In this document: positions 55,277 through 59,582 of the stretch, piece after piece
How the letters are laid out: each line of letters starts with the position of its first letter
Numbering within the stretch: the first letter of the stretch is position 1
From: Flammula alnicola
Taxonomy: Eukaryota > Basidiomycota > Agaricomycetes > Agaricales > Strophariaceae
Length of the DNA: 64,000 nt
Direction: 5' to 3'
Assembly (NCBI GenBank): GCA_015499995.1
Contig: JADNRV010000114.1
Span: 62,001 to 126,000 of the forward strand
Made by a program: the position numbers and the translations under genes
Notes under the pieces: model-generated
Databases searched by the model: none
Told to the model about the DNA's origin: nothing
Seen by the model: only the letters and a program-made list of their open reading frames with translations

Positions 55277-58200
55277 TTAAGAAGCACCTGATCTCTTGAT
55301 GACAATAGGAACGAGAAGCATGTCCCACAGCGGCTTTTGCAACGCTACCCCGCGACCGCCACGCAGACGGAGGGGCTTGGACATCTTGACCTGTGGACTT
55401 GGGCTCGATGGAAATGAGGTCTCACCATCAGGAATCACCATCCCCCCCGACATGACTCTAGAACTCCGATCAAAGGGTGAAGGTTTTTCGAGGTGGGACA
55501 AGTCTACATATTCCGTGGATATGAAGGCCTTCAAGTAGGTGATGCCAACTTCCACTCCGGCCGGCAGATTATGCTCGTTCAACGTGTAGCCAACTTGAAG
55601 TTGACCATCGTTTGGGAGGCATGGATCACCTCTGCGGTTCTTGGAGGAGCGGGGTTTATATATGATATCTGTCCAAGCAGATGAGATATCTAGTGCATGT
55701 ATCTTCAAACATAAATGGCGCACCGATTGTCAAATCTAAGATGTTGAAGGCAAACAACCAAACATAGCAGTTATGACGAGAGGAATTTCTAATTGTGAAG
55801 CCCAGGGCTTTCTCGTGTCCAACGCCATCTTCCACGAACACACTGATGGTACCACTGGCATTCAGGTTTGGACCCGCGGGTACAAGTATTGATGAATCTT
55901 GACCACCGGGGACAGACTCGGTGAGCAGATGAGCCTCGACAGTAATATCGCCGGATATCCGTGACCTCTGGCTTACGCGACGAAGGTCCCAGAAAAAATC
56001 TGCCGATAGTCTGAGAGTCGAATAGACGCTGTCAACATCTCGAGACAAGATATAAGGGAGATGATCGAGTCCTGAGTCATTGGAAATATTATCCGTAATG
56101 CCAAGTACTACCCGATCACCGTCCACCGAGACGACAACTTCTGGATCCTGGGACCTTTCTACAATTTGGATTCTCGTCCTGCGAGCCTGAGGCTGATCCT
56201 CCTCCCTCTCGATACGTTCCGAAATAGCAATCGAAAATTCTTCATCACTGAGGATGGCGAAGCTCACAGCAGCATCCTCACCTGCGTGACTTTGCAGACC
56301 ATATGTGGCTAATTTTTGAGGGATAGCGAATTCTACTGTGTGTTCATCAAAGCCCAAGGATGTAGAGAATCTAGCCACCTTGATGGCTACGACAGAACCG
56401 AGGAGTAAGTCATTCTCATCATCTCCACTGTAGATGTCAAATCGTGCGCCCGCAGTGATGCCATGTATTTCGCCAGCCTCCATGTGGAAAGACCCATTGA
56501 CCTCGCGGAAGATATCGAACTTGTGACGACGTTCTGCTGTCCTGGTTTCAAATAAAATTCGATTGTCGTATTTTCCCTGGCAATTAGGTGACTGGCTTCT
56601 TTCCAGACAACGTCAAAGTTATACTCATTTATCTCACAAACAAATGAACATACCTAGTATCTGGGAGAAGCTTGATGATATCTCGGTATGTGACAGTACT
56701 GATGCGCGGCCCCAATTGCCGCAGAAGCGTGGTTAAATCATTGGTAAAAACACCACGGGCTTTGACCTCGGGGGCCAGTTCGTCTCTTGAACATGCTGCT
56801 AGTAGAACATGTGAGTCCAAAGACGCATATGCATAGCCTTTTCCACCAAAGCCACCTGCATGACATGCGTCAAGGATGACAGTCTAGGGATGGATGATGT
56901 TCGGTGAGAAGAAAATGGACATGATAAACGGACGCACAATATTGTTGCCCTTTTCATTGGCCAAGCGTTTCAGTAAATCATTAAATTCGATGTCTAAAAT
57001 GCTTCTTTTATCGTCTTCTTGGCTACCACATGTAGCGTCGTGGGGGAATAATACTACTCTGCCCTGTATTTCCCGTCCGTGTCCAGCATAATAGATGAGA
57101 ATTGGATCATTGAAGGCAATACGGTCATTTGCTGCGAAGTTCAGTATTTCTTGTACAATGTTAGCATGGGTTGCATTCTCATCGCGAAGAATAACGATAC
57201 AGTCCTGTGAGACGTGGAGGTCTCTGGTCAGAAAGGCTTGGATGTCGTCAGCATCAGCGATGCTTCCCTTGACGTCCGTGATATTGCTGTGGTCACTATA
57301 TCTGTTAATGCCGATAATTAATGCAAAGAGAACTCGTCCTGGCAGTGATGGTACATATAGCATCTGTGATCAATATTCTGAAATTGACAACAGCGTAAAT
57401 TCACCTCACCACTAGCAAAGATGATTTTGAATTTCGCCAATGTCTGTTGACGGTCTGGATACTTTTGCTCAAGTATAGACCACAGTTCTTTGAGCACGAT
57501 AGGCTCATGTTTTATTGCCTGAGATGGGGCTGATTTGAAAGCATCCAATGCCGTTAACAAGGCGAGAATAGTCTTCTGCTGGAGCTCTGAAGTTGAGGCC
57601 TCGGCCTGACATGCCTGTGTGAGAATTCGAACTTCGGCCTGAAGGGCGCCTATAAGGAGGTTAGCCGCTTCTGGGAACTCAGTGATAGATCGAGAGCCAA
57701 TTTCTGGAATAAAATTAAACTCTCTTAGAGATTCTATGGCGACTACAAAACAGAGTTCCTTGCCTATCGCGGTTAGACCATAAATGGCATGGATGTCTTC
57801 TTCGGCCAGTGCTCCCGGTATATAATTATCGAGCTTGTGGAGGAAGTCGGAAGCATCGGCGTATGGATCCCTCTCAAGCAATGGTTGCATTTTTGCCTTG
57901 TCCCAAACAATTCCTTCATGAGTACGAGCTTTTGGTTCATATCTTGACTTATTCATCTCTTCAAACACTGATTTATGAATCAGTTGACCTTTCTTCATTT
58001 GACGAGGTTTTTCACAATGCCAACTGGAAGGATATTAGCATGTGAATTATGGGACAGCCTTGATCAAAAAGACCGCACCGCCAGACAGTTTTATTCGCGT
58101 CTTTATATGTCAAATGAGTGATAGGGATAACATATTCAAGAATTTTCCATCCCAGAGTCATTGATGGCGTAGGCGACATTGGAGACCATTGGCATCGGTT

Positions 58201-59582
58201 TGGTTCTAACCTGAGTCCATACCGAATTGCCTCATATGACATCCAGCGCAGAGATGGGCCAAAGTGATCAAGGCCTAGATTAGGAATATTCCCGCCACCA
58301 CTAAAGGCTGATCAGTATCAAAGCGGAAACCATTTCCAGGCTGATGAGAGTCCTTACACATCTGAGTGGGAACCCGCAAACCAGACCTCCTTAACATTTC
58401 CCCTCGCGCCAAATTCTGGTCCCTCACCGCCATTGACGTACTCAGGTAAAAACTTCACTCGGAGCTCGTCAAGTGCGAGAGCGTGACGGAAAGCGCAAAC
58501 ATGTTTTATTCCAGTAGTCGTCTCTGGAAAACTCCTTCCTTTCAAGACCCCAACTGCGGACACAGTATCCCTATCATGATGGGGATGGAGCTTAGTTTTG
58601 CACCCGAGATTCGCATGAGTGGATTAGTTCCTTACCATGCGCCAACGAAATGAACATTGACATTAGGTCGTGAAAGAGTGTGCTTGAACCGCTCGCATAA
58701 CTCGTCTTGCTCCTTCAGAACAACGCGCTTTTCGGTCTCTGTAGTTTTTGTGTACAACTTGTATGCGCTGACAGTTGTAATTGGTTCGTCAGTAAAAGAA
58801 AAAAATCGAGATAACATGGTAGAACTGTACAATGGAATTTGTTCATTGTTTCTCTTGTGGAGGAGGCCGACCTTCATACGTTGTTCATCCATCTGGACCG
58901 GTAACGTGTTCGGGTTCGGGGAGTTTACTTACTTTCTCGATCATACCCGCGATGACACGAACTTGATAGGCGCCACGCGAAAAGCCTGCCACCACGGTAA
59001 GCCATCGAGAAATGAACAAAAGGAAAGGTTACCCACCAAACAGAAATATTCTGTCACCGTCTTCATAATTTTCCGAAAGCCACTGGTAGGCGCTAAGGAC
59101 TTTGGTTTTAAATTTTCTAGGAACACTGTTGAGTCAAGAGCGGCAAGATTGGGGAAAAGGAATATGTATACGTTGCAATAGCCATGTCAATAGTGTGGCT
59201 AAGAGATTGTTTCCAGGCGGCATAAGAAAGCCATGACTTGGAATCTTTCACGTAGGTACCGATACCACTGTTGTAGTAGGTCATCTGATTTCTGTTTTTC
59301 AGCAGACGGCTGTACAGTTCAACGACGTTGGTGTTCTGTGATAAAAATTGAAAAGGACCCTCAAGGAAAGCGAGAGAAGGTAACACTCACATTTTTGCTC
59401 AATTGATTTGCGGTACCATCTATGCAAACGACGAGATTTCTGCCACTGAAAGGGTGTCGACACTGACACGAGACCACGTCTGTGACTCGCTCGGTTTCTG
59501 GTCGATCACCACGATTTTTTGCACCATTTAATCTATCAGGTAAAGCGCCCCCTCTCGGAGAGGTGGACGGACTTGGAAACAT
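55277..59582 (-). CDS. DUF2235/Tle1-type hydrolase fused to a caspase-like protease
   Basis: Predicted about 1,235 residues. Minus-strand exons: 59582-59391, 59335-59172, 59125-59037, 58985-58933, 58892-58636, 58570-58358, 58300-58079, 58023-57410, 57338-56938, 56883 to about 56651, then about 56576 to 55277. DUF2235 part (1-410): NLVVCIDGTANQLSKN, nucleophile elbow GFSRGAY (Ser about 151), WDTVSAVG (Asp, 252), FAGSHSDVGGG (His, 323) and GQLIHKSV at its end. A helical linker (410-600) follows. Caspase p20-like part (600-813): RVLFALIIGINRYSD, ILIYYAGHG (catalytic His about 686) and VILDACHAGG (catalytic Cys about 742). The rest is a beta-rich region seen after fungal caspase-like domains (STEYVDLSHLEKPSPF near the end). 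Exon junctions 57410/57338 keep the two parts in frame. The junctions near 56651 and a possible 34-base intron near 55700 are unsure. No P-loop or NACHT domain is present. Confidence 0.82.

What the first reader, a model, noticed from the sequence alone, without database searches (positions are those of the whole stretch)
55277..59582. A DUF2235/Tle1 hydrolase fused to a caspase-like protease, with both active sites intact
One minus-strand gene appears to join two killing-type enzymes. The sequence shows the hydrolase triad motifs (GFSRG, WDTVSAVG, GSHSDVGGG) and, about 360 residues later, the caspase dyad (YYAGHG, DACHAGG). DUF2235/Tle1 enzymes are known as membrane-attacking phospholipases in bacterial type VI secretion, and caspase-like proteases act in regulated cell death. 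A protein with both would be a self-contained cell-death or allorecognition effector. It carries no NTPase sensor, so the helical linker (residues about 410-600) or the C-terminal beta region may sense the trigger. The proposal that proteolysis gates the lipase is inference. Of everything in this window, this is my best candidate for an undescribed system.
Basis: partly seen in the sequence, partly recalled or inferred. Interest (0 to 1): 0.86.

Follow-up and report, generated by a model that had tools for sequence, protein, structure and literature searches.

The report
Fungal lipase fused to stripped-down caspase
A mushroom-type fungus has one gene that joins a probable membrane-attacking lipase to a caspase-like protein; the fusion looks real, but the two relatives found have lost the protease residues and this copy has lost a loop that such caspases normally carry, so the caspase part may steer the lipase rather than cut.

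Summary
One minus-strand gene (59582..55277) encodes a Tle1-like hydrolase (PF09994, E 3.7e-78), a helical linker, Peptidase C14 (PF00656, E 6e-18) and the C-terminal region of free-standing mushroom caspases. I add a GC-AG intron, giving 1181 aa. Psilocybe cyanescens has the same architecture (P0001). P0002, an uninterrupted 802-aa frame of unnamed source, runs from linker into caspase; its lipase part is not seen. The three caspases group together (support 88).

The interpretation needs changing. The lipase triad is conserved, but P0001 and P0002 lost the Cys-His dyad. All three caspases, the window's included, have a 16-aa loop after the catalytic Cys (median 58 in 131 intact domains) and lack two loop arginines that are 96-98% conserved. 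Of five short-loop domains, only the window's keeps the dyad. Related lipases carry WD40, TPR, ARM/HEAT or NACHT modules instead, so the caspase is most likely a regulatory module. Proteolytic gating of the lipase stays possible for this copy. A role in cell death is inferred, not shown. New variant of a known kind.

The parts
55277..59582 (-). whole gene, ATG 59582 to stop 55277; 14 exons in the refined model, 1181 aa
   Evidence: splice model, refined by homology
58237..59441 (-). Tle1-like (DUF2235, PF09994) alpha/beta hydrolase domain, aa 48-313, spread over exons 1-8
   Evidence: Pfam E 3.7e-78
58978..58980 (-). predicted catalytic Ser148 (GFSRG)
   Evidence: sequence; triad S/D/H kept in 116 of 119 aligned homologues
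58567..58569 (-). predicted catalytic Asp222 (WDTV)
   Evidence: sequence
58366..58368 (-). predicted catalytic His289 (GSHSDVGGG)
   Evidence: sequence
57410..58023 (-). exon 9 region: end of the hydrolase module plus helical linker, which is also present in many DUF2235 proteins with other C-terminal modules
   Evidence: linker covered in 57 of 120 homologues without the caspase; helices at 46-160 in the model of P0002
   Evidence: peptide absent from P0002 and other linkers; sequence GCAAGG...TTCCAG
57339..57409 (-). junction intron (GT-AG, 71 nt, phase 1) between linker and caspase; holds an ATG at 57363 in the caspase frame
   Evidence: junction matched to within 2 aa by P0002
56707..57327 (-). 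Peptidase C14 (metacaspase-like) domain, aa 575-763 of the 1201-aa model
   Evidence: Pfam E 6e-18; best solved sequence yeast metacaspase 4f6o, E 5.6e-8
57079..57081 (-). His of the protease dyad (YYAGHG)
56863..56865 (-). Cys of the protease dyad (DACHAGG), followed by a loop of only 16 aa
55277..56595 (-). C-terminal region (mixed part plus beta-rich part) shared with free-standing mushroom caspases
   Evidence: P0002 model residues 399-790, block pLDDT mostly 78-97 with a low stretch at 730-768

Best explanation
A genuine single-gene fusion in which a Tle1-like lipase is the effector and a cut-down metacaspase-type module is its regulatory half. Shown: the fused reading frame, the intact lipase triad, grouping of the three caspases in one tree, loss of the loop after the catalytic Cys in all three, loss of the protease dyad in two. 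Inferred: the caspase module took the place that WD40, TPR, ARM/HEAT or NACHT modules hold in related lipases. It keeps the lipase silent and responds to a ligand or to partner caspases by a change of shape or assembly. The released lipase then damages the cell's own membranes, as is proposed for lipase-bearing fungal NLRs. In this copy the Cys-His pair remains, so it may still cut, but self-processing in the usual loop is unlikely because that loop is gone.
For: Fused frame. Lipase triad kept in 116 of 119. Caspases of window, P0002 and P0001 grouped, SH-aLRT 88; window with P0002 96. Dyad lost in P0001 and P0002. Loop 16 aa in all three, 26-125 aa (median 58) in 131 intact domains. Of 5 domains with loop <=18 aa, 4 lack the dyad, against 8 of 136 with longer loops (Fisher p 1.5e-4, rows not independent). 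Two loop arginines, 96% and 98% conserved in 128 intact domains, absent from all three. Related lipases with WD40-type, TPR, ARM/HEAT or NACHT modules. A fungal NLR whose patatin lipase domain is needed for cell death (PMC12881547 and PMC10197012, passages).
Against: The window's dyad is intact and its caspase has the shortest branch of the three (0.22 against 0.68 and 1.7), which suggests constraint, perhaps as a protease. At 61 conserved positions it differs at 7; 7 of 128 intact domains differ at least as much, so it is unusual but inside the range of intact domains. The lipase half of P0002 is not seen. P0001 has a Cys one residue before the catalytic position, so calling it dead rests on the alignment register. 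No assay, no expression data, no known trigger or substrate.
Confidence: 0.5

Rival explanations
1. One reading: both enzymes are active, and proteolysis by the caspase (in cis or trans) removes an inhibitory part and switches the lipase on.
For: Both active sites intact in the window copy. Fungal gasdermins are switched on by proteases, in one tested case a caspase-like CHAT protease, and some receptors carry the protease themselves (PMC10197012 and PMC12881547, passages).
Against: P0001 kept the fusion and the lipase triad but lost the dyad; P0002 kept linker and caspase fold but lost both dyad residues. Loop and its arginines are lost in all three. A metacaspase without loop processing can in principle still be active (recalled), so this is not excluded.
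Confidence: 0.22
2. Two overlapping products: a lipase-linker protein ending at 57318 and a separate caspase starting at the ATG at 57363 inside the junction intron, the fusion being a prediction artefact or one of two isoforms.
For: Reading through the intron gives a stop at 57318. The ATG at 57363 is in the caspase frame and leaves nine residues before RVLFALIIG, inside the wide range estimated for free-standing caspases.
Against: The two would overlap, so a promoter for the second would have to lie inside the first. The intron is GT-AG and keeps frame. P0001 is annotated as one protein, and P0002 is one frame across the junction.
Confidence: 0.07
3. The hydrolase is not a killer: it acts on an ordinary lipid or ester, and the fusion is a metabolic or signalling enzyme.
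For: I found no tested function for a fungal member; in the fungal paper whose passages I saw, DUF2235 appears only in a list of up-regulated domains.
Against: DUF2235 is filed among toxin domains that act on lipids, with fungi in its range (PMC3482391, passage). Company with NACHT, WD40, TPR and caspase domains resembles fungal cell-death genes.
Confidence: 0.15

Closest known systems
Psilocybe cyanescens CVT25_004461 (P0001)
   Same: lipase, linker, C14 and C-terminal region in the same order; 48% identity over 65%
   Different: protease Cys replaced by Ser at the aligned position; its annotated sequence probably keeps an intron-derived stretch
Free-standing Agaricomycete caspase proteins (e.g. 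P0121, 738 aa; P0126, 698 aa)
   Same: C14 domain and C-terminal region, about 35% identity
   Different: no lipase; dyad usually intact (131 of 145 domains other than the window's); loop after the Cys 26-125 aa in those 131, with two conserved arginines
Fungal DUF2235 proteins with WD40, TPR, ARM/HEAT or NACHT (e.g. P0004, P0022, P0094, P0016)
   Same: same hydrolase; many also share the linker (57 of 120)
   Different: a repeat or NTPase module where this has a caspase
Patatin-like lipase NLR PLP-1 of Neurospora crassa (PMC12881547, passage)
   Same: lipase effector plus regulatory half in one fungal protein
   Different: patatin, not Tle1-like; NB-ARC and TPR instead of caspase; tested in cell death, this is not
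Fungal CHAT protease and gasdermin pairs (PMC10197012 and PMC12881547, passages)
   Same: caspase-related protease coupled to a membrane-damaging protein
   Different: two genes, CHAT not C14, pore-former not lipase

Membership tests
Tle1-like lipase domain (PF09994/DUF2235) | profile match over the whole catalytic domain | tested here: met
   profile 1-285 of 287, E 3.7e-78
Tle1-like lipase domain (PF09994/DUF2235) | Ser-Asp-His triad | tested here: met
   S148, D222, H289
Tle1-like lipase domain (PF09994/DUF2235) | phospholipase activity | not testable with these tools
   no assay
Bacterial T6SS Tle1 effector | delivery by a type VI secretion system | not tested
   gene has fungal-type introns; only the Pfam name carries T6SS
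Peptidase C14 / metacaspase-like | profile match | tested here: met
Peptidase C14 / metacaspase-like | His-Cys dyad | tested here: met
   met in the window (H637, C691 of the 1181-aa model); lost in P0001 and P0002
Free-standing Agaricomycete caspase family | long loop after the catalytic Cys with two conserved arginines | tested here: not met
   16 aa, both arginines absent
Fungal NLR | NACHT or NB-ARC domain | tested here: not met
   none at E<=0.1
CHAT protease/gasdermin system | CHAT domain with a neighbouring gasdermin gene | tested here: inconclusive
   domain is C14 and no CHAT profile is listed; neighbours were not scanned for gasdermin

The most novel reading that the evidence does not exclude
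A lipase-armed, c-FLIP-like caspase: the fused caspase has given up loop processing and, in two lineages, catalysis, and serves to dock onto the cell's many free-standing caspases (57 of the 62 matches lie outside this gene). Their activation would then be turned directly into membrane lysis instead of proteolysis. Loss of the dyad in other fused or doubled caspases (NACHT protein P0208; second copies in P0123, P0124, P0132) hints at a recurrent rule in mushrooms. The c-FLIP parallel is recalled.
Probability: 0.2. Interest if true: 0.8.

Novelty: new variant of a known kind. Interest (0 to 1): 0.58.

Why it matters
Agaricomycetes have many caspase and DUF2235 proteins, and my ten paper searches listed no study of how they work together. 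A protein that physically joins the two allows a direct experiment on both: whether the lipase kills, and whether a caspase fold can control a death effector without proteolysis. The window copy keeps the dyad while its relatives lost it, so one small family holds the comparison.

Tried and rejected
Two-gene model: judged unlikely (see rivals). A 41-nt junction intron (57404-57364) would also keep frame, but adds residues (GE, then MLYVPSLP) that P0002 lacks, so the 71-nt intron is preferred.

AlphaFold of P0001 on a mixed alignment was poor (pLDDT 54.6), and its PDB search is not used. The model of P0002 (pLDDT 81.6) does not contain the lipase, so nothing is known here of lipase-caspase contacts. 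The later domains (399-790) got no separate fold search; no fold is claimed for them.

Searches that were not exhaustive: each scored only the roughly 8000 candidates sharing most words. Searches did not list P0001, although it was in the alignment. The number of fusion proteins (window, P0001, and P0002 in part) is a lower bound. Pfam lists are cut short for many rows, so I rely on BLAST for the architecture of those 120. None of the 120 rows lists PF09994. (prokaryote scan with two peptide patterns) confirmed no relative among 27 stretches; this says little about bacteria. The own-genome DNA search gave one full match and two 199-base matches at 69%. Other DUF2235 loci of this genome are distant from the fusion, and 4 of 12 fetched stretches gave no blastx match to nine chosen proteins. 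PADLOC gave only its caspase model (E 6.8e-27) and a weak RmrT hit (0.0045).

N-module tree: window and P0001 are not resolved as sisters, but a clade is not rejected (p 0.578).

Rows dropped: P0210, P0211 and P0212 (poorly alignable) were left out of the intact set, which brings it from 131 to 128; P0243 and P0217 (misaligned at the dyad) were also left out of the Fisher test, leaving 141 of 146 rows. Two edge columns counted were artefacts and were removed. A first, regex-based loop count had false matches and 30 rows without a match, and was replaced.

Full report
The gene. A splice model on the minus strand from ATG 59582 to stop 55277 gives 13 exons and 1201 aa, all introns GT-AG and 51-71 nt (splice sites). 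Comparison with P0002 and with linkers of other DUF2235 proteins shows that 20 residues of exon 9 are extra, and these match a 60-nt GC-AG intron at 57763-57704. I therefore use an 1181-aa model, predicted and not confirmed by RNA. Pfam finds PF09994 and PF00656, both far above their cut-offs, and no NTPase domain.

Is the fusion real? One search found 276 homologues and lists 120. BLAST of those 120 finds the whole architecture in one, P0001 of Psilocybe cyanescens, and linker, caspase and C-terminus in one more, P0002. P0002 is an 802-aa uninterrupted frame in a 2877-base contig of unnamed source. It starts just after the position of window intron 8 and crosses the positions of five window introns. 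That looks like transcript-derived sequence, but it could be an intronless gene, and its lipase part is not seen. At the junction P0002 reads IF--GRPFFALIIG where the window reads IFASGRVLFALIIG. In the 74-Mb assembly the gene has one full-length match, itself, and no other match to the linker is listed.

Where the halves come from. Caspase plus C-terminal region is a common mushroom family: 92 hits besides P0002, most of them free-standing, some doubled or joined to other domains. In this genome 57 of 62 matches lie outside the fusion gene. The lipase occurs in other mushrooms mostly with WD40-type modules (about 103 of the 120 rows by my reading of accession lists that are partly cut short; the WD40 meaning of many newer accessions is recalled), and also with TPR (P0022, P0043, P0063), ARM/HEAT (P0090, P0094) and NACHT (P0016). 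A tree of 56 caspase domains puts window, P0002 and P0001 together (support 88; window with P0002 96), with P0001 on a long branch. The N-module tree of 68 rows puts window and P0001 in a six-row group (96) with four Psilocybe proteins, three of which have TPR hits; the two as sisters are not rejected (p 0.578). This fits one origin of the fusion but does not prove it.

What the active sites say. In one search the lipase triad is complete in 116 of 119 aligned homologues. The protease dyad is complete in 89 of 94; the five exceptions are P0001, P0002, the NACHT protein P0208, P0156 and P0193. With second copies of doubled caspases included, one search lists eight domains without the dyad (the Cys column of one, P0132, is misaligned there). 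In a fresh alignment of 146 domains, 131 besides the window have the dyad and 14 do not, two of these 14 being misaligned rows. The stretch from the catalytic Cys to the SHVLLAAC strand, which in caspases is the p20/p10 linker (recalled), is 26-125 aa (median 58) in those 131 and 16 aa in the window. Only P0001 (16), P0002 (16), P0156 (18) and P0208 (8) are as short, and all four lack the dyad. Two arginines of the loop, kept in 96% and 98% of 128 intact domains, are missing in window, P0001 and P0002. Metacaspases cut after Arg or Lys (recalled), so these are plausible self-processing sites. The association of short loop with a dead site has Fisher p 1.5e-4 on 141 rows, but the rows are related, three of the five short ones being in one clade. 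Against this reading, the window copy has the shortest branch of the three, and its 7 deviations at 61 conserved positions are reached or exceeded by 7 of 128 intact domains, so activity is not excluded. In P0001 a Cys stands one residue before the catalytic position, so its loss rests on the alignment.

Mechanism. I think it most likely that the lipase is the effector and the caspase module its switch, because the lipase triad is conserved and the protease dyad is not, and because related lipases carry other regulatory modules. The membrane-damage step follows from DUF2235 being filed among lipid-acting toxin domains (PMC3482391, passage) and from lipase domains of fungal NLRs (PMC12881547, PMC10197012, PMC4986451, passages). 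It is not shown here.

Literature. DUF2235 occurs in 35 papers of the library; I saw titles and starts of abstracts, and passages of two. The one that also has 'metacaspase' names the two separately. Two reviews and two surveys of fungal cell death and NLRs have 0 occurrences of DUF2235 in the text held (PMC12881547, PMC10197012, PMC4986451, PMC9815663; passages seen only). Subscription papers are not covered.

Noticed in passing
window 53385-54996 and 59834-61683: The fusion gene lies between two copies of a direct repeat (main block about 1.4 kb, 89% identical); a third stretch, 72% identical, lies outside the window at C18:130743-131534.
   Followed up: partly
window about 60029-60280: A roughly 250-bp dispersed repeat with dozens of partial matches on other contigs is present in the right-hand flank copy and absent at the matching point (53585) of the left-hand one.
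   Followed up: no
window 18470-21866 and 22923-28913: Paralogous stretches at about 65-74% identity whose reading frames look like NFX1-type helicase or AAA proteins (recalled, not scanned).
   Followed up: no
window 62687-64000 and L022 8140-9473: A gene-like stretch downstream of the flank repeat is repeated at 89% identity beyond the window end; function not examined.
   Followed up: no
P0123, P0124, P0132, P0208: Doubled caspase proteins whose second copy lacks the dyad, and a Galerina NACHT protein with a C-terminal caspase-like part without the dyad: fused caspases may be prone to go dead.
   Followed up: partly
P0001 residues about 477-500: The annotated Psilocybe protein has an extra stretch at the place of the window's GC-AG intron, probably an unspliced intron in the annotation.
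   Followed up: no
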